Assembly (NCBI GenBank): GCA_002270565.1
Contig: NQMI01000013.1
Location: forward strand, 62,001-126,000
DNA length: 64,000 nucleotides
DNA from: Stenocarpella maydis
Taxonomy: Eukaryota > Ascomycota > Sordariomycetes > Diaporthales > Diaporthaceae
Reading direction: 5' to 3'
The position numbers and the translations under genes were made by a program. Of the stretch, positions 1-32,038 are shown piece by piece; within the stretch, counting starts at the first letter, position 1, and every line of letters begins with the position of its first letter. The notes under the pieces are model-generated. The model was not told the DNA's origin, searched no databases, and saw only the letters and a list, made by a program, of their open reading frames with translations.

Positions 1-3000
1 ATCGGTACGTCACTGTGTCCTGCTTGCATGATCGGCTGGAGACCTCTCCAAATGAGCCATATTGTGTCGTTCGAGCAATGCCGAAGACGTCTGTCTGCTT
101 CACGAGACGGCTGTACCTGTCCAGGGAATTGACCTGGGTGAGGCCGTCCGAGTACGTGGTCTTCGCAAGCGTCCCGTCCAAGGTCGTCTCGTACTTGATG
201 ACTTCGGCACCGTCCTTGACCTGGGTAAGACGGCCATCTGGGTTATAGGTGAGCTCCGTGGCGCTGGGGGGGTGCGTAGGATACGCCGTCTTGACGAACT
301 GCCCCACGGCATCGCAGGTGGTGATCACTTCTGACTTGTCAAAACGCACAGTCTTGCTGAGCCAGCCGTTGGCGTCATAGTAGTTCTTCTCTTCCTGGCC
401 AAGCTGGTTGCGAGTCACGGCGACTCGGTTGTTGCTGTCATATATGCTGACAGGGCCTTTGACTTGAAATGCCCTGCCGTCGGCATACCTCGTGTCCTTG
501 AGCCAGGTATATGTATTGCCAAAGACATCATAGGTGAATTGGCGCTTGACCGAATCCTGACCCCCGCTGGTGGAACCCGTCATGGTGCGTGACTTGATGG
601 TGGACTGAGGACCGTACTCAATATCTGTCTTTTCAAGCGCGACTTCATTCCCGGAAGTCTTGGGCCGCTGAATCAGAACCGTGCTGATCGGTCTCTTATT
701 GCCATCGTAGGCAGTATTGGTCTCGAGGAGGTATGTCGTCAGCTCATCACTAGAGTCTGGATAGGTGACGACTTGGGTCTCATCGGAGCGTCCATTGAGT
801 TGAGTAAGCGAGCGGACCTCGCCGTTCAGCTTTTTGGTGATTCTGACGTTGACGTCGTCATATTCTGAGCTCAGGACGTTGTTTCTCGCATCGGTTACCG
901 TCAGTGTGCGGGACAAGGCGTCGTAGGTGTGTTTTGTCACAAGACCCAGGTTATCCGTCGACTCACGGACTCGTGAGAGGAAGTCGTAAGTCTGGCGCAT
1001 CAACAGCCTGTTGGCGTCTGACGAGGTGGACTGCGTCGGATCCCCGTTGTCGAGGATCTCGGATTCACGGCCCAGGACGTCGTACTTCGTAAGCTTGACG
1101 TAGCCCATGGGCGACTTCACGCTCTCCGAGCCGCCGTTTGGCCCGACCGTGTAAGTGTTTGTGGTGACGTGACCCAGGGCGTCAGTGTGCTTGACCAGCC
1201 TGCAGATGTTGTCGTACTCGAACGTCTCGGTCTGCCCCAGGGGCAAGGCCTTGCTCGTCATGGGTCCTGCGTACTTGCGCATGTCGTATTTGATGACGGT
1301 GGCATTTCTGTCAGCATCGTACGATGTCTGAGTGAGTGTGCCGTTGCCAAACGAGTACGAGATCCTGTTCGTCACCGTGCTAACGCTTCCGTCAGGCACT
1401 GGCGCGTCCGGGGCCCAGGCAAGGGTATCAACGATGGCCCTGCCCTGGGTGTCATACTCATACGAGTGCTTGGTCCATGGCTTGAGCGGCTGGCCAGCAC
1501 CGGGGAGGAAGAAGGCCGTCGTGGAAGCCACAGCCTTTCCGTCATCGGTTGGTATGTTGACTGTCTGGTCCTCGGACTTCGTGATCTCATCTCTATGGAC
1601 AGACATGGCCACAAGCTGAATGTTGCAAGAGGTTGTGACATATTGATTCGTCGTTGTCGTCTGCTTGACGTAGCCCCTTCCAGGGACGTCCAGCTCCGTG
1701 GTGGTCTCCGTCACGTTGCCATACTCATTGTATTCAGCACTAGAACGTGTGAGGGCATGCCAGCTTGGTTCTCCCGCAGGGTTTGTGTTGTTGAAGACTT
1801 CCGTAATCTTTGGATAATTGTACGCGGTGGTTCTCGCTTGCTCGTCGATCGGAATGTCATATTCATAGGTAGTCTGATAGGCTTCCACGAACTCGCCTTG
1901 ACTGTTGAGATCATACTTGATCTGTCGAACAGGGAGGTGGTAGTTGTTGAAATACGTGGTGGTCCTGGAAGCCCCCCTGTCGTCCTCGCCGTCAAGGTAT
2001 CTGGTTTTGGTGACGTCGTACCTTCTCAACATTAGCAAACAGGTTATCAACAGTGGGACTCATTTTGTCCTTACGTATAGGACAACGCCTTCCCATCTCC
2101 ATCCATCAGGGTGTCGGTAGCTCCGGCCATTTTCAGGCCAATGGCTGCACCGGTATAGGTGTTGCCGCCGGTAAACCCTCCCAGATCGTAAGACGTGTGG
2201 CTGTACATGCTGTCATTGGAGTCAAATTGGTAATGGTCATTGACCTTAGGCATGTATTGGCTGGACTCGTTCGCGTCCAAGTATTCAGCCGTGCCCCAGT
2301 CGTATCTTGATGAAAGACCAGTTGGGTATGTGATTGTCGATAGGACCTTCCAGCTGTCGTTGCCGACGAAGGGCACATAATCGAAGAGCGTGGTAAGATT
2401 CGCAGGGTCCTGGATGCTAAGGATACCATCCTCTGAGAAGGCGACTGTCGTGTATGTTCCGTCTGGGAGAGTGATTCTCCACTCTTGGGCATCCTGGTAC
2501 TCGAACTTGATTTGCTGTCCCCACGAGTCTTGGACGTAGTCCAGGAGCACCATCTGTTCACCAACGCCGGCATCCGATCCTTGTAGATAACTGTAGTAGA
2601 TGAAATTGCCATAGATGTCCGAGTTCTGCAAGGGCTTCCCATCTACATCGAAGTATATCTTGGACCCGTCAACCTGGTTGAGCTGATAGCCGTACTGACC
2701 AGGGAGTCCCGATGGTAGGTCCTGGGGAGGTACAACCTGTTCGAATTTGATGCCATGGTTGTTCAAGTACTTCAGGCCAGAGGCATAGCCAGTCGCATCT
2801 GACCATTCGTAATCGATGGCATAGGTACGTCCGTTCGCAGTAAGGCTCTTGCCGTTCAGGACATAGGGAAGATCGAGACTCCAATTGGGTGGCAGGCCAA
2901 AGGTCCCTGATGTGCCGAAGTTGTAACTTGCATTCAGACTCAAGTCAATGCTGGTCCTGACGCCACGAAGCTGTACTAGCTGTGCCTTGTAATTCAATGA

Positions 3001-3087
3001 TCCTGTGTTAGGATTCACGGATTCGTTTTCCTGAGGCACAATGTGGCTGAAGGCCTGTGAGCCCTGGTATTGCCCTGCGTTATCCAT
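1..3087 (-). CDS. RHS/YD-repeat protein, partial (runs off left edge)
   Basis: Two exons are visible: 3087-2075 and 2021 to the window edge, joined by a 53-bp intron (2074-2022, GTAAGG donor, GCTAATG branch-like site, AAG acceptor). The phase closes exactly, giving about 1011 visible residues with no stop in the parts I checked. The product contains many YD-type repeats, for example LTYNPDGRLTQV, KNYYDANGWLSKT, FEYDNICRLVKHTDALG and HTYDALSRTLTVTDA, typical of RHS proteins. These are large beta-cocoon proteins, bacterial in origin, that often enclose or deliver a C-terminal toxic domain. The C-terminus, where an RHS core and any cargo would lie, is outside the window. No signal peptide or membrane segment is seen at the N-terminus. 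Fungal RHS genes are generally thought to be acquired horizontally; the intron shows this copy is a eukaryotic gene model. Whether it is a toxin cannot be judged here. Confidence 0.85.
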
Positions 3088-3246
3088 GATGTTTTGGTGA
3101 TGCCAGTGATGGATGAGGCCTTGGAAAGCTGGGGATCAGACGTGACAGAAAGTCAAGCTTTAGAAGAAGACTGAGGACAGGAGTTTGATGGCGAGCCGAC
3201 GGTCGACTTGGAGCGAAGTTGCTTTGTTTTATCATGAGAACCTTCA

Positions 3247-18730: not shown

Positions 18731-19687
18731 ATGAAGTCAGCGACAGCATCCCTCATCATCACCGCCCTGGCCTCGACGGCCATCGCCCAGCCTCATGGCG
18801 GCCACCACCAGCACCAGCACCAGCACCCGGCCCGCGCCGCCCACCAGCACCACGACAAGCGCGAGCTGTTCACCGAGTGGGAGGTCGTCTGGGTTACCGA
18901 GACGGTGACCGAGCTCATCGACGGCACCGCCACGCAGTGGATCACCCCGACCAGGAGCGCCCCGCCCACCACCCTGGCGACCGTCACGTCGTCGGCCGAC
19001 GGCGGCCAGTTCTTCGAGAGCTCATCGGCTGCTCGCGCGTTCAGCGCACCACCCCAGGTCATCGCCCCGCCGCCGGCCGCAGAGACGCCCAAGTCGCCCC
19101 CGGAGGCGGCCGTGCCACCGCCTCCCCCGGCCCCCACCACCAGCAGCGGCTCGACGTCCGCCTACGTCGCTCCCCAGCCCACTGCTGCGCCCGTGGAGGC
19201 GCCCGCGCCCGCCCCGGTGGCACCCAAGGTTGAGACCCCCCCGGCTGCGCCCTCCGTCCAGGCCGCGGCTGCTCCCTCGGCTGCTGCCCCCGCGCCGGCC
19301 CCCGCGGCGTCAAGCCCCAGCACCGGCTCCGCCGTCGACACGAACTCCAACGTCGCCGCCGTGCTGGGACCCGGCTACCAGTCCGGCGACCTGACCTACT
19401 ACACCGTCGGCCTGGGCGCCTGCGGCGAGGACGACAGCGGCAAGGACATGACCGAGAACATCGTCGCCATGTCGTCGGCGGAGATGGGCTCGCAGTCCAA
19501 CGGCAACCCCATGTGCGGCAAGACCATCAAGGTCTACAACAAGGCAAACGGCAAGAGCACCACCGGCGTCATCCACGACAAGTGCCCCGGTTGCGCCAAG
19601 GGCAGCATCGACGTCTCGGAGAAGATGTTTGAGGAGCTCGCCAGCCTGGCCGACGGCCGCATCGACATCTCGTGGAACTGGGCCTAA
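18731..19687 (+). CDS. Secreted expansin-like / Asp f 7-type double-psi beta-barrel protein
   Basis: Intronless, 318 residues. It has a signal peptide (MKSATASLIITALASTAIAQ), a His/Gln-rich propeptide ending in a likely Kex2 site (HHDKR before ELF), and a long Pro/Ala/Ser-rich linker (about 90-210). The C-terminal domain (about 222-318) starts GDLTYYTVGLGACGEDDSGK and includes the four cysteines in GACG, PMCG, DKCPGC. It ends ADGRIDISWNWA, as in RlpA-like double-psi beta-barrels of the Asp f 7 and cerato-expansin-like fungal proteins. It would act in the cell wall or medium, probably binding polysaccharide rather than hydrolysing it. The start follows a long leader with a TATA-like element. 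Confidence 0.9.
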   Translation: MKSATASLIITALASTAIAQPHGGHHQHQHQHPARAAHQHHDKRELFTEWEVVWVTETVTELIDGTATQWITPTRSAPPTTLATVTSSADGGQFFESSSAARAFSAPPQVIAPPPAAETPKSPPEAAVPPPPPAPTTSSGSTSAYVAPQPTAAPVEAPAPAPVAPKVETPPAAPSVQAAAAPSAAAPAPAPAASSPSTGSAVDTNSNVAAVLGPGYQSGDLTYYTVGLGACGEDDSGKDMTENIVAMSSAEMGSQSNGNPMCGKTIKVYNKANGKSTTGVIHDKCPGCAKGSIDVSEKMFEELASLADGRIDISWNWA

Positions 19688-20899
19688 AGGGCGTTTGCTG
19701 CTAGTCTCCAGTTCTGATCATGACCCCTCCCGGCCTCAACCAATCCCCAGTCTCGGGGGTATGGGGGGAGGTTTGACGAATTTCCTTTTTCCAAACTCAT
19801 CACGAGGCATTTGGCATGATATCCAAGGGGTTTTTTCCTCCCCAGCACCACCCCCATTTTCTAGGGCTCGGGAAAAAACCAACAAGTCTATATTCTTGAG
19901 GGCGTCAATGGGGAGGGGGAGGGCGGTTCTGTGTGTTATCACAAACCAGATACACACCTTGTTTTCGTTTCGGCCGCGTCTTCCACCTTCATTCCCTTCT
20001 TGATAAGCAGAGGCAATCCTGGTTTCGCTCCTTACGACAAAGATACCCCAGGGACTCTCTGCTCAATCACATATGAGCCCCGCATCCTTTTTTCACAACT
20101 TTCGGACTTCTTGGAGACGATTGGGGAAACTGGAAAAAAGAAAGAAAAACCCTGGAAATCTGACAGGCAGGGCTTGCATAGACCTTAACTTCTAGTGTAT
20201 ATACCTTAGGGATTTTATTTAAAAACAAATTCTACCTGGACTGGGACCAAAAAGCCCGGCCTTGATCAAACCGTCCCAAGATCACCTCGGCTTGTTTTTT
20301 AAACCCTCCGTTGTTGATGTAGTGTATGTGCCGTTGTGGGGGTGGGTCCCTGATGATGTTGCGTTGTGGAGTTTCTGAAGGGATCGCCGACCCCCATCGC
20401 TTGTTGGGCTCGGCTGGCCCTTTTTTTCTGTGGGTTCTGGAGTGTGATCGCTTCTTGGAACGACTCCATTTTTCACACTACTGGACGTGAGTGAGTGGTG
20501 CGCCTTGTCGGCTTTCGAGATGTTGATTTAACTAGTGTACCTAGGCACGTAGTCTATATGATGGGGCAATCCGACGATCTCGAACAGTGCACACACGCTC
20601 GCACTCGCCGTTCCTCAGCGCCCGCGTTGGCCATGGCCAGGTCCGGGCCAAATGCAAAAGTGTCACGAATCAGGGGCTCGCTGGGCCCACTATTCTTACG
20701 CTCATTGGGGTATATAAACGAGCACTTCTCGCTCAATAGCAGTAGTGCTAGAAAACCAGTCAAGTTGCTCTATTCGATACGCCGCGCTCGGAATCGTGAC
20801 AAAAAGGTTTGTTCAAGCTCCTGGTTCGGACTGTTGATGCACGATTTGATGGTTTCGATACGTCAAAAGGGACGGCCATCAGACGGTGGTATTAGCTGG
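19688..20899. other. Intergenic between convergent genes
   Basis: No supported gene. It contains the 3' flank of the expansin-like gene and that of the protease-kinase gene. A TATATAAA near 20710 on the plus strand has no gene behind it. Confidence 0.55.
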
Positions 20900-23800
20900 C
20901 TAATAAGCGATGGATTCCCGCCCGCTGGACTTTGGGTGTAATGCGGTCTTTTTCTGTTGGGGAATGAACTGCCTCATACGGGTTAATATCTTGTCCCTCC
21001 TACCCGCCGTTCCTGTTGAGTCCTTCCCGTGCAGTCTTGACGGCGCCTCCAAGGCGATATTACCTTCGGTCTGTCGTTCCCGCTGAGTGCGGACTTCGTT
21101 AATGGCCCTGAATTGCTCAATCAATGCCCTCTCGGCCTCCAGCAGTTGGATTCCTGACATGGAACTGAAATCTGACGTGTCAGGGCCGACGACCTTGCTG
21201 GCGCTCGGATTAGAGGTCTTCGACCCCTGGTGAAGCGCATATTTCAATCCGACCCTACGGCGGGTGTTTCTGTGCCAGGTTCCCTGCACCTGACCAGCGG
21301 CATCTGTCTGCCTCACGACCTCCTCGATCTCTTCTTCAATCCTTTCCAATGGGAGAATCTGAATCGCTGCTGTTGAGTTTGAACCTAGCGTCTCTCGCCA
21401 GCGAGCAGACTGGAAAACGACTTCTGGACCCTCGGAATTCCGACCGCCAGGGTCTGCTGGCCGCACATTGGGGCCAGAGCTCGATTCCTGGACAAGCTGA
21501 CTCCTTGACTGTGTGGCGGATATTCGAGGAATTGACCGTAAATGTTCGATCAGAGACTGTAGTGTACTCAGAACTTCGACAGATCTGGCACGGCCCCTCC
21601 CTACCACAAGCATCTCCTCCGAGACGAGATCGAGGAAGCCGTTCAGAGTCGAACAGACCTGTGGATGCGAATCCAAGTCGTACCGAAGAGAGCGAATGCA
21701 CTAATGGGTGTCAGCTTCAATCATTTCCATCTGGTCTGTCCCTAATTCGATTGAATTTTACCAACCTCTGTAACAGACGTTTTTACGACAGCCTGAGGCT
21801 CCGTAACACCGATCAACATCTGGAAAAATTCGCCCATGTCCTTGCCGTCGTGGGTATCCTTCTGGCGAGCCGCTCTGAAGTCGTCCACACCTTGCGCTCC
21901 ACGCAGCAGCCAAGCTATGAATTCGAGGTATACGCAACCCAATGACCAGACATCGAAGGATCTGGACACGGGTTTTCCGTAGTCGGTCTCGAGCTCAGGG
22001 GCGCTATATCTTATCGTCACGCCCGGCTGTGATGTTACGCTTTGCCTTGTCACACGCTCCTGTGTCCCGTCATTGTGGAATCTGGTCTCCCCAAAGTCAC
22101 TGATCTTTAGAACACCCATCCTGTCTTGGCCAGTCTGTTCCGGAGATTCGTCACGATACCATAGAATATTTTGGGGTTTGATGTCGCCGTGCCTCCCGTA
22201 TACCTCCTCCGACAGCTTAGATGTTCCATGAATAATGCTCAGACCTTCAGCGAGCCCTGCGCATTGTTCCAAGAACCAGAGTACCAGAGCCGTTGTCACA
22301 GACGGCCGAGGCATGGCTCTGACCCACAAATCAGCGAGATTCCCGTCAGCCCATGGGAAGACGAGGAAGTGTGAGTCCCGCCATCGGTATGACGCAAGCA
22401 CGGTGTTCAAATGTGCGTGGCGTGGAAGCTTCATCAGTGCCGATATCTCCGCGTGGAATGTCTCTTCCACCAACGAACGAAGTTCTTTGACCGCGAATTC
22501 CCCTGCACTCTAACCCTCAATTGTCAGTTTAAGTGTTTGATTCCGAACAGCCGTGACTTACGGATGCCTGAGAGAAGTCGAAATGCGCAGGATGTATTTG
22601 TACACGCCTGATCGTCGACCCGCCTGTCTCCGTCACTCTGTCACAAGTCAACCAAGGTAGGACAACCTTCCGGTGGAGACGATAGAAGAGCGAGTTGCCT
22701 TTGTTGTCCAGGCTGAATCGTGGAGCCAGCAACCCCCATTGCATTGTGTCAAAATTAGCAATTTTGAGTCTGTTCAAGCGATTGAATGAGTTCAGTCGTA
22801 GATTAGACATCGTGTCTGATGATGCATTCATGCCCCTGCGGTAGAGATCCCCACCATCTGTGACAAGAGGCAGGTCATCATCAGTAAGGCCTTCGGTACA
22901 CATGTCCTCCAGAATTTCACAGCCATCGATAAGTATGAGGACGGCAAACAGCCTGCGAGCAGATCGGAGAACATAATTTACCAGAAATGGTAAAGGGTGT
23001 TGCCTGAGATCAAGTGAGCGTCCCACGTAATCAGAAACCGAGGAGGCATCGAATAGTGATTCCAGGGCATTTTGTGGTAGGAAGCGACGGTCATTGCCTT
23101 CACCGGCCGACAGGACCATGGATTTGAGTAACCGGTCCTGAAAGCTGACCTCAGCCTGTAAAGGCTCCAAGGCAGGGACGGCTCTTTCAGTCGGAATCTT
23201 TCGAGGGTCAGCAGGAGTGATCAGTTCGATCAAGTGAGACATTAGATCTACCTCCGGCCATTGCCCAATGCTACAGATTCAGTCAACTCCGTAAGCTTTT
23301 GCCGAATGATAGTGCATTTATATGCTTAGACTCTTGGGGAACATCACCCACGTTGCTTCGATATCGCTGAAAAGCTTCTGAGCAGATATCATATACACTA
23401 TGGGTCCCAAGTCGTTGCTGGCAACGACCATGCCACATAGCTTATTGCCAACAAGTACCCAACATCCGGAAGTAACATGAGCTATTTGGATTATTAGCAG
23501 GATAGTCCGTTCTCATATTCGTAGAATAACTTACGCAAGGTCTCATTGTTCTTCAGTCGGATTATCCTCGTAGTGAACTGCCTGCCTCGTATGAATATAA
23601 CTGGAGCTTTTCTTAGCAAAGTTGCCGAAAGGATACGATCCGGCTCGATAATGACACTCAGCTCTTGGTCCGTCTCGGCCATCGAAAGCAGTTCATCATC
23701 CATCACTAGCCCGGTAATACTTTGAGCTCCGGAAGCAGCCGAGAAGGAATTCTGGAGGCTGAATGGCATATCGAGTAGAGTGAAATCCGCATCCCCAGTC

Positions 23801-24911
23801 GCGTTTTCGATATTCCCAATGGATACGCTGGACGGATGCTGAGGTGTAAGGCTCCAGACATTGCCCAGCCAGTTGATGGCGTGAAAGCCCGTAATAGGTG
23901 TCCAAATGGTATTGGAAAAATCCCTCTCATGCGCTTCCCTACTAGTTTTAACAGTTGTGTCGCTCTTCCCTGGTCTTTTAGTAGCTGCAGAAAGGTCAAT
24001 AAGGCAGTTACTGTGGAGTCTTGTGGCTGGCTTCATTGAGACAGCTGACCTTTGTTCTGGACTCTGCGTTTGTGGCCGTTCACTGTCTTCCTTGATGTGG
24101 CTGCCAACACGTAGTCAGAGAGGCCATGTGCCACGGTAACGGCAACTAGCTTCTTCGACCCTTTTTGATCCAGGATTTCGACCATACCACCAATCCTGCA
24201 GACTCGAACAAGTTGCCGGTGTCCATACTGCTCAAGCACAATACCGCACAGCAAACCGCAGCAAGATGGTCTGGATCGACTATTTTCCCGAGGTCTTCCC
24301 ACACTCAGGAAGAACCTGTAGCCCTGAGTGGGTAAATCAAATCCCCGTTCCAGGATTAGCCCCTCCGGCACATGGACCTCATCGGCCGTTCTCCAAGAGA
24401 GATTGCTCAGCCCAACTTCTATCTTAGACCCGAGACCTAGGTTCTCCGGTATAGTCGACGGTATTTCGTCAAGGATCTTTCTTGCATCCTTCACGACGTC
24501 GAACCTGCACGCCACCCACCCTCTCGGCTGCAGCCTGACCGCCAGGGGCTGGCGCCTTGCTGCCTGCCCAAAGAGACGGATGTCTGTGATTACAGTCCTG
24601 AGGCTCAACTCTTCCTTGTAGTCGAGGTCGTTTCTTTCTATGTATTTCTGGATAGCTCCCTCTATCTGCAGCAAGTGTGGAGTCTGGAGCTGCTGCACCA
24701 GAGAATTCGTCTTGGTGAGAAGACGTTGTTCATGATTGCATCCTCGGGGTGGTGGCCGGTATATTGTGATTTCGTCCTTGGCTATGAAGAACCTCTTCAT
24801 TCCGTAGAGTGTCTCCCGGTGCCGCCGTCCACGTACCTCTTCAACGAGTGCCCCCTCCACGGCGTTGGTCAGCTGGATCGGGATGCCGTCCGAACACGAG
24901 GCGATAGCCAT
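20900..24911 (-). CDS. Trypsin-like serine protease - protein kinase fusion protein
   Basis: I rebuilt six exons: 24911-24050, 23984-23535, 23481-23352, 23270-22562, 22509-21766 and 21700-20900. Introns are 65, 53, 81, 52 and 65 bp, and the total of 3696 nt closes in frame to 1231 residues. The N-terminal 200 residues are unassigned. A trypsin-like domain follows with a full apparent triad: His262 in TVAHGL, Asp354 in GDADFTLLD, and Ser442 in TSGCWVLVGNKLCGMVVAS. The kinase domain has Lys725 (FAVKEL), HGDIKPQNIL (Asp826; HGD replaces HRD), DFG (Asp855) and APELE. A C-terminal region of about 260 residues has the motif SLRYDLDSHPQ...FLDLVSEEML. The crucial link is the 81-bp intron with a GTGGGT donor. 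If it is not spliced, the protease would end at a TAA near 23320 and the kinase would be a separate gene starting at 23242. The last donor (GTTGGT) is weak. The protein is probably intracellular, since no signal peptide is present. Confidence 0.75.
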
Positions 24912-25294
24912 GCTGATTGGTGGACAAAATGGTACCAGGTTGAAAGAGATAGAAACAGGGGACAGTGCTTTGTTGATGAAAATTGAACTGGGAGCCTATT
25001 TGCTTGCAAGACATACCTACCTAGGTAGATACCCCGCAGAGGACATAGTTCAGAGTATCAGACACGTCATCTGAGCAACGTTGCCGCCTAGACTATTGAG
25101 CGCCATCTTGCCTCCCCCTGCAACACTCACCTTTCAGCTGCATCATGCTGCGTTGCTGACATGCATAGTGTGAGGCGTTATAGGTTTCCAGCCGGGTATT
25201 TGACCAGTTCTGTGTGTCTGGGGCTTTCCTGCCCCGTGGTGTCTCTTGATTTCACGTTATTCCTGCGCCATCACTCTTCTCGTACGTGCTAAAG
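24912..25294. promoter_or_regulatory. 383-bp bidirectional promoter
   Basis: Separates the start codons of the protease-kinase gene and the membrane-anchored gene. It contains a TACCTAGGTA palindrome at 25018. Shared sequence suggests possible co-regulation. Confidence 0.5.
25018..25027. other. TACCTAGGTA palindrome, copy 3
   Basis: Lies inside the bidirectional promoter at 24912-25294, within a longer near-palindrome (TACCTACCTAGGTAGATA). Confidence 0.7.
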
Positions 25295-26500
25295 ATGGCG
25301 CTAAACGATCCACGGCAGGCGAGAATTCAGAAGATATGGCCAGACATACCAGAAGCGCACGTTCACAAAGAAGACTATCGCCATTGGCTATCATACCTTG
25401 ATCTTCTGTCTTCAGAGATTATTCGACGGTCTACAGATGCAAATATGCAATTCAGATGCGCCATTGAAAATCCGGATACGATACTCAATATCGTGGGGGA
25501 ACTTCGAGCTCTTCGCGTGCGGCGGTGGGGGGCGCACCCGACAAGGGACGGTGTGGAACAAATGACAAGGGCAGAGATCATTGCAAAGATCCAGGCGGAG
25601 AATCTGCAAGGAATGGGTGGGCATACTGAAGATGCGATTATGAACGCTGTCTTCCTTGCAATCAGTCTTTGGACAACCATCGAAATCGGTGCCTACAACA
25701 AAAGTGGACTATTAATAAGTAAGAAGGTCAATTTATGGGCCGAGAACACAACACTGGCCCAATTTTTAAGTACGACATTCCCAAAAATACCAGCACCATC
25801 ATCTTTCAACACTCAGGCTATAATTCTCAACCCGAAACTAACTATGGAATATCTCTGTACCTTCCATTCGTTCGACTGGGTGTTCACACATGACCTCTCC
25901 GAGCATTTACATATCAGATGGGCGGGCTCTGAGAACAACAACAGACCAATCCTCATGATATATATGCACAAGGTCTTCCTGCGAAATGAGATATCCGAGC
26001 ACCTGAACGGCCATCGACGCTCGATGCTTCCTATAGACCTGGTTGAAGAAGCCCTGGATACGCTCAACCTGCTCTTCCCGTACAATGACCGCCGCACGCG
26101 CGGCCTGCTCCGCTCCAAGAATCAAGAGGCTGAGTTTTGTGACCTCGCCTGGTGTGGCCGTGGCCGATCGCTTGATCTGCGGCGTTATTCCTACTGGGGG
26201 GAGCGCATCATGCAATTGTCGGAGATTAGCAAGGGGGAGCTACTCGGGTTCTCGCAGCTGAGGCCTGACCGTGATGGGCGCAACTTGATGCAGGCGATGA
26301 ATTTCTGGACAGCGATGTGGGTGGCCGCTTTGACGATTGCCAGTGCCATAATTGGGGGGCTCTCGGTTGTGTATGCAAAGTGGTCGTATGATGTGTCGCG
26401 GGCAGGATATGAGCTGGCGTTGGCGCAGGCTTGTGCAGTGCCAGACGCTGAAGCTCAACTGCCTCGTTTCTGCCGTGGAGGCGGACCTGCGGCTGGTTAA
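25295..26500 (+). CDS. Conserved fungal protein with C-terminal transmembrane segment, unknown function
   Basis: Single exon, 401 residues from the ATG at 25295. The N-terminal 340 residues are soluble, mixed alpha/beta, and have no domain I can name. A hydrophobic segment near residues 345-370 (FWTAMWVAALTIASAIIGGL) is preceded by GFSQLRPDRDGRN and followed by a short Tyr/Ala-rich tail. I recall this C-terminal layout from uncharacterised proteins in Fusarium-like and related fungi, but know of no assigned function. It is divergent from the protease-kinase gene, and a DUF7580-type relic follows on the same strand. This context suggests an accessory, possibly self/non-self-related gene. The extreme C-terminus (after QACAVPDAE) is Gly/Pro-rich, and an unseen 3' intron cannot be excluded. 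Confidence 0.7.
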   Translation: MALNDPRQARIQKIWPDIPEAHVHKEDYRHWLSYLDLLSSEIIRRSTDANMQFRCAIENPDTILNIVGELRALRVRRWGAHPTRDGVEQMTRAEIIAKIQAENLQGMGGHTEDAIMNAVFLAISLWTTIEIGAYNKSGLLISKKVNLWAENTTLAQFLSTTFPKIPAPSSFNTQAIILNPKLTMEYLCTFHSFDWVFTHDLSEHLHIRWAGSENNNRPILMIYMHKVFLRNEISEHLNGHRRSMLPIDLVEEALDTLNLLFPYNDRRTRGLLRSKNQEAEFCDLAWCGRGRSLDLRRYSYWGERIMQLSEISKGELLGFSQLRPDRDGRNLMQAMNFWTAMWVAALTIASAIIGGLSVVYAKWSYDVSRAGYELALAQACAVPDAEAQLPRFCRGGGPAAG

Positions 26501-26619
26501 AATCATCATGGCATATATGAGTAGGGAGCTCATAAGTTGTGTGCTTCGGCGACCTCTGTTATATCTGTGAGCTCATCCTATGGAAAACCTAAATCAGAAA
26601 CTGCTAAACTAATATAATA

Positions 26620-27393
26620 ATGATATTCACAGCTAATTCTACTCGGCCGGCTAGCGTCACAGCGATGTTGGAGTGCGATCCGCAGCCAGTGACGAATTTG
26701 TGCCTGCTCACCTCGCGACAGAATCCGGGAATAGACGGCTGCGAATTCGTCACCAATGTCCAGGACAAGTTCAATGTATACACACAGCTGTATGGATCCG
26801 GTTCCCACGCCATAAAGCCGCGCCACGTGCTTGAAGGCAGAGACCAAACGCTGCCTCCATGCGGCTATCCAGAGAAGCTGTGACTCGCACTGGCCCTCTC
26901 TGCGAGCGTGTTGCACCTCTACAGCAAGCCATGGCTGGCGAGTATCGCTACGCTTGACGACGTCCTTTTCCTCCGCGAAGACGTCTCGTAGGCCCTGATG
27001 TAGTCTCCTTACCGGCCATTTGTCATAAAGGCCATACTTGAAATTCTGAATTCCCGTCCAGCAGCTGTCTCCGGCGCAACACGGCCCATGGATCTGACAC
27101 TGCTGTCGCTAGGAACGCTCCTGATCTACATCACCATCGGGCGGCCTATCGAGGCGGTCAACATGGTCGGCGACACGGACATTGAAACGGTGCTCGGCAA
27201 GCAGCCGGCCGCCAACCAGCTCACCGGTCCTGTCTTGCAGATCGGTGGCATGAACTACGACGCTGCGGTGCGGTGGTGTCTTAGGAGTATCCTCGGCGTG
27301 GCGAGCTTGGAGGACGGTGGATTCTGCAAGAGCTTCCACGAGGCGGTCGTCTCTAGGCTCGAGACTGATGCCAAGAGGGCGCTTGGTGAGTAG
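26620..27393 (+). pseudogene. DUF7580-family pseudogene (three in-frame stops)
   Basis: One frame carries family-like blocks in the right order, interrupted by stops. First comes LALALSASVLHLYSKPWL and DDVLFLRED, then SPYRPFVIKAILE. A C-terminal block follows: MDLTLLSLGTLLIYITIGRP, then AVRWCLRSILGV and FHEAVVSRLE. Stops are a TGA at 26881 and two TAG near 26989 and 27001. Both TAG codons would be CAG before a C-to-T change at CpA, the pattern made by repeat-induced point mutation; the TGA would come from CGA. DUF7580 is a fungal family of unknown function named from memory. An intron covering the stops cannot fully be excluded, but homology reads through them. Confidence 0.65.
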
Positions 27394-27996
27394 CGGCACA
27401 CATGAGACAGATATATGCCAAGCAATTCCGAGATATGGGGAATGCAGCGACAAGGATGAACAGTAGTTATGATAGCGGTGGTCTATTGAATACTAAAAGC
27501 AGAGTTATAAAATTACATAAACTGTATAACTATACACATACATATACAAAAAGACTTCAAATATACATACACAGAACGCATGTATGCGATTCCCGGAGTT
27601 ACTGCATCGCAAAAGACTCAGAACAGAGTCCTTCGAGGCTAGTGATAACTCGGTACAAAGCTGAGATGCAAAATTATACGTCATGACCCAACAGAATTTT
27701 CTTGAGCACCTTGCCGTTTGTGATGATCGATGCAGCGGCCCATGGGGCAAACAGAGGTATTTGAGGCTGGCGAGGGGTGATGAGGTGGTATAGAAACAAA
27801 ATGCAGGAGGCGTACCGCTAATGGAATGCAAGAGACCGACCATTGCCGGCGAATTGACGTGGATGTGGTTACACAAGGGGGGAGGGGTATAAGAATATGG
27901 AAGGGTGTTCCCCACCTCCGAAGACGATGCATTCGCGTCTGTCACATCAAGAATTCTCGGTCTGGTCTGATTTTACCGTTCAAGTGCATACAAATC
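27394..27996. other. Intergenic, AT-rich in part
   Basis: Contains an AT-rich section (27480-27570) and the likely promoter of the SET gene. No other feature is seen. Confidence 0.55.
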
Positions 27997-29470
27997 ATGA
28001 GCATCGACGCTGGCTTTGACATGGTTCCTCGCCTCTCACGAGGAGTCGAGGACACCCAGGATTGGGAACGCTTCATCAATACGATCAAGGAGCGTTACAA
28101 GGATGACGCTCAGGTCGAGATGACTCCCAACTACATCGAGTTCAAAGCAGGCGAGCACCCTTGTCTGCCTTACCAAGGCCACAAGTTCCTCCGATTCAGC
28201 TCCAAGATTACAGGTCAAACTGCAACAGAGTCTGGCGTGGGGGGCTACATCGAGGCCGTTGCGGCCGCTGCAAAGGATCACTTTGGTTCTCGGACCCGGT
28301 ATTGGAATGAATGTTTCGACGAGATTGGCCACTACGACTGGCCAGAGGTCTACGAGTCCATCAGGTCCTACGATGAGGTCTTTAGATTAATTCCCAGTCT
28401 CCAGATACACCCGCGATGTCTGACCTGTTGATTCGCAGCCGGCCGATAGCGGTATCACCACTAGCATCACTCCCTCGGTCGATGGCACCGAGCCGGACCG
28501 AGGCGCGGGGGTTTATGAGATGCTATTCGAGGTCAAGCAGATTTCCGGAAAAGGCAAAGGGCTGGTGGCCCGTCGTGACATCGCCGCTGGCACTCGCATC
28601 GTCTGCGAGAAACCGCTCCTCACGGTCCATCCCATGCCAGGTGAGGCGTTGGAGCTCGTCTTGGCTGAGAAACTCCATGCCCTGACCAGGGCTGAGCAAC
28701 GTCAATACTTGTCCCTCCACAATAACTTCCCCGGAAAGCCTCCCCTGGGCAGCATTCTCAAGACGAACTGTCTTCCCTGCGGGCCGGACTCACCCATCGG
28801 CGGCGTGTATCCCACCATCTGCCTTATCAACCACAGCTGCCTCCCAAACTCCCACAACAATTGGAATGACGCAGCCAGGCACGAGACAATCCACGCAATC
28901 CGGCCGATAAAAGCCGGAGAGGAGATCACGATCGCTTATGACCACGGAGGGACATCCGCCGAGCGACGGGCGTTCCTAAAGGGTGCCTTCGGCTTCGACT
29001 GCAGATGCAGCAACTGCACGCTGACAGGCTCCGAGGCCCGAGACAGCGACGCCCGCCGCGCCCGGATCCGGCGCCTCGACGACGCCATCGGAGATCCCTA
29101 CCGCATGGCGGCCAGGCCGGAGGAGAGCCTCTGGGACTGCCACTCGCTCCTGCAGACCCTGAGGGAGGAGTTCCGGGGCCACGCCGGGGCCCACGCCTGC
29201 AGGCTGTACTACGACGCCTTCCAGATATGCATCAGCCACGGGGACCGGGCGCGGGCGGGTGCGCTTGCGGGGAGGGCATACCAGGCCAGGGTCCTCTGCA
29301 ATGGCGAGGACAGCCCTGAGACCGGGAGGACGAAGGCGCTCTCGGAACGGCCGGACGAGCACATGAGCTGCGGCTTGCTGTCTGGGAAGTGGAACTCGAC
29401 GAGGAACATGGTCCCCAAGGGCCTTGATGAGGCACAGTTTGAGGCGTGGTTGTTTAGAGTGCAGCGCTAA
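27997..29470 (+). CDS. SET-domain protein (putative lysine methyltransferase)
   Basis: Exons 27997-28377 and 28439-29470 are joined by a 61-bp intron, giving 470 residues in frame. The N-terminal 127 residues (FINTIKERYKDDAQ, FLRFSSKITG, HYDWPEVYESIRSYDE) match nothing I know. A short linker precedes a SET domain starting FEVKQISGKGKGLVARRDI (about 160). It has the key motifs NHSCLPNS (AdoMet pocket) and EEITIAYD, and a post-SET zinc cluster FDCRCSNC. The C-terminal region is a helical tail. Similar fungal SET proteins are widespread and mostly uncharacterised; substrate is unknown. The donor GTCTTT is atypical while the acceptor TTCGCAG and branch CTGAC are good, so the fusion of the N-terminal part is less certain than the SET domain itself. 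An alternative start is the ATG at 28021. Confidence 0.8.
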
Positions 29471-29841
29471 GACTGTTTGAGCGCAACGCGAGAAGGATTC
29501 ACCGAAACCAGTCGTCTTGATATGTGTGGTCACTGAATACTCCGGTGCTTGGGGCGGCAGGGTCGACGTCAGAGAGTAACTTCGTGACATAGGCCTGATA
29601 TGCCCAGCAAGTATAGTTGGCCCCCATGGATAGAAGATGAGTAACTCTGGAGGCTCGATGTGTCAAAGTTTCTTGTCAAGAGTTTGGAGACCGGCTTCCA
29701 CCTAAATTTGCGTGTAGCATTCTTAAGGAAGAATTTGAAGTTGTTGTTCTAGCAGCCTTACGACCAGGAAAACTTAGAATCAAGCGCGCTCTACCAAAAA
29801 CAGGGCATGGCGGAGCCAATTTCCCTTACCTAGGTAGACGA
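29471..29841. other. Intergenic
   Basis: 3' flank of the SET gene up to the transposon end; contains one TACCTAGGTA palindrome (29827) immediately next to the transposon. Confidence 0.55.
29827..29836. other. TACCTAGGTA palindrome, copy 4
   Basis: Perfect palindrome 6 bp from the left end of the transposon. Confidence 0.7.
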
Positions 29842-29896
29842 TACCATACCCGGCCACCATTTCGGCCACCCCACGATCTCGGCCAGCAAAACCGCT
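29842..29896 (+). repeat. Left terminal inverted repeat of the pogo element
   Basis: Pairs with 31984-32038. It keeps GGCCACC and GGCCAGC where the right copy has GGCTACC and GGCTACT. Confidence 0.8.
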
Positions 29897-30138
29897 CAAT
29901 TCCCACACAATCGCCATATGTTCACTTACACATTTCTCAACAACCACTAAGGTTATCTAGAAGCCGTCTGCATAAGTAAATAGAGAATTGATTCCTCATG
30001 ATCCTCATGTGTTATATTAGTAATTTGGTGGGCTTCACCGCCCATTTCTGCCAAGTGCCAATTAACCCCAAATGCCAAATCAGAAAGAATGTTCTTATTA
30101 CCCATCAAGCCAGTCAATCCACCCAGATCGCCGCCACA

Positions 30139-31879
30139 ATGCCTCCAAAGTCCTATATAGAGGACAACATACTAAATGCCGTTCATAACATACAAGAGAA
30201 CGATCTGGGAAGGAATAAAGCTGCAAAGAAACATAGTATGCCATCATCTACAGTCAGTAATCGCTTATCTGGCAAGCATTCTTCAAAGCAAGATCTAGAG
30301 GCCATACCCACGAATGCTCTACTATTAGATAGGCAAGAAACGCGCCTAGTGAGATGGATTTTGCGCCAAGAGAAGCTAGGGTTTGCGCCTAGTCAGGCGA
30401 CTATTCAAGGCATCATTGGCAACATCTCCAATTCAAAGGTTGGCAGTCACTGGGTAAATCGCCTGATTCAGCAGCATCCAGAGATTCAAAGCAAGGTTGG
30501 GCGCAGGCAAGAAGCTGCCCGTTTCCACGAGTTTACCCCTCGGGCAGTCAACTAGTATTTCGACATCCGAGAGGCTGAATATATATAGGTGAAGCCGAGC
30601 CTCACAGTCAATATCGATAAAGCCGGCTTAATAGCAGGTTTCAATAGGCAAATCAGAGCCAATTAAGCTGTATTCAAGCACAGTAACTAATAATATATAG
30701 GCCTTGATTCTCTGGTGGTTAGAACTTCTAAAACAAAGAAGGCAATGCTCAAATCTGACCAGTCAAGGTAGTGGTCTACTATAATTGAGAGTATCACAGC
30801 CACCGGTGAAGCCCTTAACCCAGGCATCATTTTCAAAGGTAAAGACCTACAGCAGCAGTGGTTTATCAACGAATTCCACAAGACAGTGCCTAGTTAGCGA
30901 TGGATCACATCCCAGAATGGGTGGACGAACAATCAAATAGGCATAGCGTGGCTTGAGCAGGTATTTCTGCCACAGATAAATACCCGCCGTAAAGACAAGT
31001 CAGAGGCAATTCTCCTCATACTAGATAGCCATTTCAGCCATACCTCTATAGGTTTTAAGTGATGATATTTAGATTTAAGGATATTTAACACTAGCTAGTA
31101 CGCAGGACAAGTTCATAACTATATGCTTTAAGAACAACATCTTCTACTACTATTTACCAGCGCATTATTCCCATGGGCTTCAACCACTTAATAACGGCGT
31201 TTTTAATACTCTTAAGGCATACTATCATAACTCTCTTTCAACATAGCAATTACTCACAGACTCAGCGCCCGTAGATAAGATTAACTTCATCAAATGTCTT
31301 GCTAAGGCCCATACCCGAGCAATAACACTAAAGACTATCAAATCAGCATTTAGAACCACTGGGAATTGGCCAATTAGCCGTATCAAGGCATTATCACACC
31401 CAGAAATCCAACTGGATAAGGAGAAACGCTGTGCCAAGTCCTCTAAGCCTAAAGATGAAGATCCCATCAAGTCAGGCCATAATATCATAAACCTCACTGG
31501 TCCAAACCCCTCGGCTGGAGATCATCATAAATTTCAACGAATTGGCTTTGCATTTAACGAGAAGGAAGCAGAATTGAAGATCGCAAACCAGTGGATACGT
31601 AAGCTTGAGGCTCAAGTTAAGCGTTTAACTACAAAGAAGCACAGGGCTGTCCCCAACCCAAACAAGAAGTTTATACAAATGGGCGAGATACTAGGCGAAA
31701 GGAAGGAGGTTGAAGATGCCCTCAATAAAAGGAATCAACCAGAGGAGTAAGTTAAAGCCGAAATTAAGGTTTCTATGGGCGAAGAGTCTGTGGATGATAA
31801 GGAAGAAGATGAGCCACCGCCGGATGTGCGGACACGTTCCGGGCGTGCATCCAAAGTACCTTCACGATATACCGATTAA
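30139..31879 (+). pseudogene. Pogo/Fot1-type transposase, inactivated by many stops
   Basis: From MPPKSYIEDN the N-terminus has the helix-turn-helix pair of this class (LGRNKAAKKHSMPSSTVSNR; then GFAPSQATIQGI, GSHWVNRLIQQHPEI). After the first TAG at 30553 the frame continues with DDE-region blocks: GIIFKGKDLQQQWF, NGWTNNQIGIAWLEQVFLPQ, ILLILDSHFSHTS, FYYYLPAHYSHGLQPLN, and a basic coiled tail ending SGRASKVPSRYTD. Stops are mainly TAG/TAA, as expected from C-to-T at CpA. No active protein can be made from this copy. Confidence 0.85.
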
Positions 31880-31983
31880 AAAGCTAGTTTCTAAGCTTCA
31901 AAACCATATTCGCATTATTTTGATATCACCAGAATTAATTCGGTAAGAACCTCACTAAGTTGCAGTGTTTTGTATAGTGCATA

Positions 31984-32038
31984 GCAAATTTTAGTAGCCA
32001 AAATAGTAGGGTAGCCGAAATGGTAGCCAGGTATGGTA
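31984..32038 (-). repeat. Right terminal inverted repeat of the pogo element
   Basis: Reverse complement of the left end with mostly C-to-T differences; see the element entry. Confidence 0.8.

What the first reader, a model, noticed from the sequence alone, without database searches (positions are those of the whole stretch)
20900..24911. One protein joining a trypsin-like protease and a protein kinase
Seen: six exons close in frame to 1231 residues, with an apparent His262/Asp354/Ser442 triad and a kinase domain with Lys725, Asp826 and Asp855 intact. Known: fungal accessory genes often fuse protease or kinase modules in self/non-self recognition proteins. Inference: protease and kinase activities in one intracellular chain suggest a signalling switch. 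I know no described example of this exact architecture.
Basis: partly seen in the sequence, partly recalled or inferred. Interest (0 to 1): 0.85.

Follow-up and report, generated by a model that had tools for sequence, protein, structure and literature searches.

The report
Fungal signalling protease fused to kinase
A filamentous fungus carries one protein that joins a protein-cutting signalling enzyme to a protein kinase; a known fungal stress protein, SltB, pairs similar parts in the opposite order, so this is a new arrangement of a known kind of switch rather than something without precedent.

The parts
24050..24911 (-). exon 1: residues 1-287, N-terminal extension and first part of the protease region with H262
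   Evidence: 59% identity to P0001
23535..23984 (-). exon 2: residues to 437, D354
23352..23481 (-). exon 3: S442 (VTSGCW) and the end of the protease domain
   Evidence: hhalign to the protease family
23271..23351 (-). disputed 81-bp intron 3 (GTGGGT...TAG)
   Evidence: ungapped P0001 alignment across the junction
22562..23270 (-). exon 4: poorly conserved linker (12 of 45 identical at residues 481-525), helical region about 526-690, start of the kinase
   Evidence: 'helical' from the low-confidence P0001 model
21766..22509 (-). exon 5: kinase core K725, E738, HGD D826, DFG D855, APE E889
   Evidence: Pfam PF00069 2.9e-16 at 718-915
20900..21700 (-). exon 6: end of the kinase and C-terminal tail, stop

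Best explanation
One intracellular fungal signalling protein: an SltB-type chymotrypsin-fold protease followed by a helical region and an active-looking Ser/Thr kinase from an uncharacterised fungal kinase family. Shown: a single conserved reading frame through both halves, kinase motifs, and membership of the second protease half in a fungal protease family that includes an SltB-like protein. Inferred: it works as SltB does, by autoproteolysis. The protease cuts its own chain, most likely in the poorly conserved linker (about residues 481-525), and so frees or activates the kinase; the kinase may in turn phosphorylate the N-terminal region to switch the protease on.
For: Single chain: P0001 covers both halves. 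Protease family: hhalign P 2.3e-6 with 8 family rows and 1.5e-7 with 9; 24.1 bits against a best of 3.3 in 2000 shuffles, hhalign 54.2 against a best of 25.7 in 100 column shuffles. S442 aligns with the GDSG/GDCG nucleophile and D354 with the LDYAL aspartate. Fold of the family: with the P0009 model, 47 of the 50 Foldseek rows shown and 50 of the 50 VIA rows shown are PA-clan proteases. SltB link: L040+L072 encode a 1216-residue chain laid out like SltB, with a GDSGAW protease. SltB autoproteolysis followed by SltA processing: PMC11011638 and PMC5541321, passages. Kinase.
Against: No transcript, cleavage or activity data. The half of the protease region holding H262 and the N-terminal extension is not significantly similar to the family on its own (15.0 against shuffles up to 21.8). 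V440 replaces the oxyanion-hole glycine (P0001 keeps G), so the window copy may be impaired. The P0001 model is poor (pLDDT 43.8) and the 50 rows shown of its Foldseek list hold no protease. Blocks around the triad are no better conserved than the rest of the domain (p 0.21). The annotated P0001 lacks the kinase segment with D826. No Pfam or PDB sequence match for the protease. The kinase-like part of the SltB-like L040 has no Pfam kinase match and only 3.8 bits to my kinase profile.
Confidence: 0.5

Rival explanations
1. One fused protein in which the protease part is a degenerate, non-cutting module (pseudoprotease) that binds a partner or substrate, and only the kinase works.
For: V440 in place of the oxyanion glycine; a relative in the same genome (L022) has lost His and Asp; triad blocks not extra conserved.
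Against: H, D and S are all kept in both the window and P0001, and P0001 keeps the glycine.
Confidence: 0.27
2. An active protease with the kinase part acting as a regulatory or scaffold domain (prodomain), as suggested for the SltB pseudokinase; the true output is cleavage of a transcription factor.
For: SltB precedent (PMC11011638); a family member carries a Zn2Cys6 domain in the same chain (P0009).
Against: Unlike what is reported for SltB, the kinase motifs (here FAVK, HGD and DFG) are intact.
Confidence: 0.15
3. Two adjacent genes, a protease ending at TAA 23320 and a kinase starting at 23242; the fusion is a splicing misprediction, also in D. amygdali.
For: Both annotations are predictions; the linker after the junction is poorly conserved (12 of 45); related kinases in this genome show no protease in the flanks held.
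Against: Ungapped conservation across the junction, including codons upstream of ATG 23242; canonical GT-AG ends; a second protease-kinase protein exists (P0004).
Confidence: 0.08

Closest known systems
SltB of Aspergillus nidulans (PMC4557415, PMC11011638)
   Same: One long chain with a kinase-fold part and a chymotrypsin-like serine protease; protease of the same fungal family, through the SltB-like L040 of this genome.
   Different: Order reversed (pseudokinase first, protease last); SltB is reported to lack VAIK, HRD and DFG, whereas here FAVK, HGD and DFG are present; the window protein has no HeLo match, L040 has one.
Ssy5, MEROPS S64 / PF08192 (yeast amino-acid sensor protease)
   Same: Fungal chymotrypsin-like signalling protease; its pathway also needs a casein kinase (title in the reference list of PMC4557415).
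   Different: No kinase in the chain (recalled); PF08192 does not match here.
P0001, 'protein kinase' of Diaporthe amygdali (NCBI)
   Same: Same domain order, 56% identity.
   Different: Annotated sequence lacks about 100 residues of kinase including HGD, probably a gene-model gap.
P0004, unnamed JGI metagenome protein
   Same: Trypsin-like module, then the kinase with its preceding region, in the same order.
   Different: Nucleophile Cys (GDCG); its kinase groups elsewhere.
Fungal gasdermin-controlling proteases (PMC12881547, passages)
   Same: Fungal proteases reported to be fused at times to kinase-like domains.
   Different: The protease types named in the passages are S8 and CHAT; Pfam found neither here.

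Membership tests
PA-clan (chymotrypsin-fold) proteases | chymotrypsin-type barrel fold, family level | tested here: met
PA-clan (chymotrypsin-fold) proteases | fold shown for the window protein or its orthologue | tested here: inconclusive
   P0001 model pLDDT 43.8; protease region mostly under 50; no protease among the 50 rows shown.
PA-clan (chymotrypsin-fold) proteases | His-Asp-Ser/Cys in order | tested here: met
   H262, D354, S442; D and S aligned to the family by hhalign; the His half is not significant alone.
PA-clan (chymotrypsin-fold) proteases | glycine two residues before the nucleophile (oxyanion hole; recalled rule) | tested here: not met
   V440 in the window; G in P0001. Of 11 members compared, 9 have G; the window and L022 have V.
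Eukaryotic-type protein kinase | Pkinase profile over the curated cut-off with K, E, D (loop), D (DFG) | tested here: met
   60.1 bits against 31.7; K725, E738, D826, D855.
SltB | N-terminal pseudokinase followed by C-terminal protease | tested here: not met
   Order reversed and kinase motifs intact.
SltB | protease of the SltB type | tested here: met
   hhalign with L040 alone P 8.9e-5, with the family 1.5e-7. That L040 is SltB rests on layout: no SltB sequence was held, and its kinase-like part has no Pfam match.
SltB | autoproteolysis and SltA processing | not testable with these tools
   needs experiment
Peptidase S64 (Ssy5) | match to PF08192 | tested here: not met
   no match for the window protein up to E 10; best in the whole genome 8 bits, elsewhere.
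Fungal NLR | NACHT or NB-ARC domain | tested here: not met
   only kinase profiles match up to E 10.

The most novel reading that the evidence does not exclude
A hitherto undescribed fungal class of intracellular chymotrypsin-fold signalling proteases, with Ser or Cys as nucleophile, is repeatedly joined to the very partners that the yeast Ssy5 route keeps as separate proteins (kinase, F-box protein, zinc-finger factor). The window protein is its self-contained protease-kinase switch, in which self-cleavage releases an active kinase.
Probability: 0.25. Interest if true: 0.75.

Novelty: new variant of a known kind. Interest (0 to 1): 0.52.

Why it matters
Two covalent-signal enzymes in one chain offer a switch that can be tested directly: does the protease free the kinase, or does the kinase arm the protease? 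The link to SltB gives an otherwise unannotated region a working model and suggests that the SltB-type protease is a shuffled module. The SltB paper reported no genes similar only to the SltB protease part (PMC4557415, section 17). Here the module is found with a kinase, an F-box, a Zn2Cys6 domain and with no Pfam domain.

Tried and rejected
Separate-gene reading: disfavoured by conservation across intron 3. Self/non-self NLR reading: no NLR domain. Homology of the N-terminal extension to the family's own N-terminal domain looked likely by eye but failed the test. Extra conservation around the triad: not seen. Ssy5/S64 profile: no match. PDB sequence searches with the window's N-terminal 502 residues, with A4, with A2 and with a typed L040 piece: 0 matches each. 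PADLOC and NCBIfam scans of five relatives (P0001, P0004, P0009, P0011, P0013; not the window protein): matches only in the kinase parts of P0001 and P0004, best MAD6 (PADLOC E 3e-26 for P0004), all far under the NCBIfam cut-offs; none for the other three. The protein search of the window's N-terminal half found P0001 alone among 7986 candidates scored. A true second copy at C67: identical over 10,762 bases and forking at a repeat, so more likely an assembly overlap. Gasdermin neighbours: not tested with a profile of their own; eight window ORFs were scanned with Pfam.

Full report
What is there. On the minus strand, 24911-20900, six exons close in frame to 1231 residues. The window lies in an unnamed fungal assembly of 53.5 Mb in 312 contigs, at C34:62001-126000. 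The best relative is from Diaporthe amygdali, order Diaporthales; that the window's fungus is of that order is inference.

One gene or two. P0001 (1182 residues) aligns with the chain at 56% identity. By region the identical/aligned counts are: 1-199, 111/196; 200-492, 178/286; 526-690, 96/165; 691-985, 112/192; 986-1231, 114/235. The alignment runs without a gap across the intron-3 junction and includes residues coded upstream of the would-be separate start at 23242. If the intron is kept the protein stops at 491 residues. Both gene models are predictions; no transcript was available. P0001 as annotated lacks about 100 residues of kinase including HGD, probably a gene-model gap.

Kinase. Pkinase E 2.9e-16 over 718-915. 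K725, E738, D826 (HGD), D855 (DFG) and E889 are present. A region before it, helical in the low-confidence P0001 model, is shared with P0002-P0008 and with own-genome kinases. The window's kinase half has many relatives in its own genome: 39 matches, six of them the window and its C67 copy. A six-frame search of the 71 loci then held, with the protease-family profile, placed only L022, L028 and L040 above the inclusion line; the first two were in the profile itself, so L040 alone was new. That search cannot exclude protease parts beside the other kinases: flanks were 1.5 kb, nine of the 39 matches had no locus of their own, and the window's own exons scored only 9.7 bits.

Protease. No Pfam or PDB sequence match. 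P0004, found through its kinase, has a trypsin-like N-terminal half by eye. A search with that half, 7992 candidates scored, gave five more proteins: P0009 with a Zn2Cys6 domain, P0011-P0013 with an F-box, P0010 with no Pfam domain. The own genome holds three more members: L022, L028, L040. The window's protease region joins this family: hhalign P 2.3e-6 and 1.5e-7 once L040 is added; 24.1 bits against a best of 3.3 in 2000 shuffles. The half with H262 is not significant alone, although it reads VTVAH where most of the family reads LTVAH or LTVGH. Among 11 members compared, the nucleophile is Ser in 4 (window, P0001, L028, L040) and Cys in 7; His and Asp are kept in 10, L022 having lost both. 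V440 stands where 9 of the 11 have the oxyanion glycine; the other exception is L022.

The known relative. Extending L040 with L072 gave an open frame of 1250 residues, 1216 from the first Met, with a C-terminal GDSGAW protease. Its N-terminus has a HeLo match (PF14479, 1.8e-5) and no Pfam kinase match. A degenerate kinase-like stretch is seen by eye, with HGN for the catalytic loop and FDL for DFG, and by 3.8 bits to my kinase profile. This is the layout published for SltB of A. nidulans: pseudokinase then chymotrypsin-like protease, 1272 residues, Pezizomycotina only (PMC4557415; abstract, sections 15 and 17, and passages read). I call L040 SltB-like by layout; no SltB sequence was held. SltB cuts itself, releasing the pseudokinase part, then processes SltA (PMC11011638 and PMC5541321, passages).

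Two fusions. In a 21-row kinase tree the window and P0001 sit with own-genome C271 (92/91), and P0004 with P0003 and C14b (90/81); neither group reaches the tool's star. Holding window, P0001 and P0004 as one clade is rejected at p-AU 0.024. The test was run after the tree was seen, and long branches are present. So the module probably, not certainly, met kinases twice.

How it may work. By analogy with SltB, self-cleavage in the weakly conserved linker (12 of 45 identical at 481-525) would free the kinase. Equally, the kinase could arm the protease: the Ssy5 route in yeast is reported to need casein kinase I (title in the reference list of PMC4557415). That Ssy5 activation also uses the F-box protein Grr1, and that its target Stp1 is a zinc-finger factor, are recalled. 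If so, the family's fusions to kinase, F-box and Zn2Cys6 domains echo that route. All of this is inference.

Novelty. Paper searches (open-licence PMC papers only) led to SltB and to one review sentence on fungal protease domains fused to kinase-like domains (PMC12881547), and to no example with protease first and an intact kinase. Three fungal NLR papers searched for these terms name S8, CHAT or kinase domains and, apart from one reference title, no trypsin (PMC12258605, PMC4986451, PMC9815663). A fungal immunity review (PMC10197012, passages) and a fungal kinome paper (PMC2838846) gave no such fusion in the passages seen. New variant of a known kind.

Noticed in passing
window 19315-32038 and G000:C67:1-12724 (L017, L018): The start of contig C67 repeats the window: 19315-30076 identical, then 82 differences between 30077 and 32029, all transitions, inside a repeat with 27 matches in the genome (itself included). 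Probably an assembly overlap that forks at a transposon touched by RIP; a recent duplication is not excluded.
   Followed up: partly
P0004, P0009-P0013; L022: Seven of the 11 family members compared have Cys (DCG or VCG) where trypsins have Ser. Chymotrypsin-fold cysteine proteases are, as I recall, known mainly from viruses.
   Followed up: partly
L040 with L072 (G000:C111, about 1000550-1004300, minus): SltB-like protein whose N-terminus matches the HeLo domain (PF14479, 1.8e-5): HeLo, a kinase-like stretch and a protease, a layout reminiscent of cell-death proteins.
   Followed up: partly
L022:580-2547: Family member that has lost His and Asp, followed by DUF7896 (PF25438) and an end with weak matches to coiled-coil families.
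   Followed up: no
window 25295-26497 (+): Divergently transcribed neighbour of 401 residues with a hydrophobic stretch near its C-terminus (by eye) and no Pfam match up to E 1; may share a promoter region with the fusion gene.
   Followed up: no
window 2071-3135 (-): Open frame of 354 residues that reads like an RHS-repeat protein by eye; no Pfam match up to E 1.
   Followed up: no
G000:C12:487000-488193: Own-genome match to the F-box half of P0013 (39% identity) with no protease match listed beside it: the F-box part may exist apart from the protease here.
   Followed up: no
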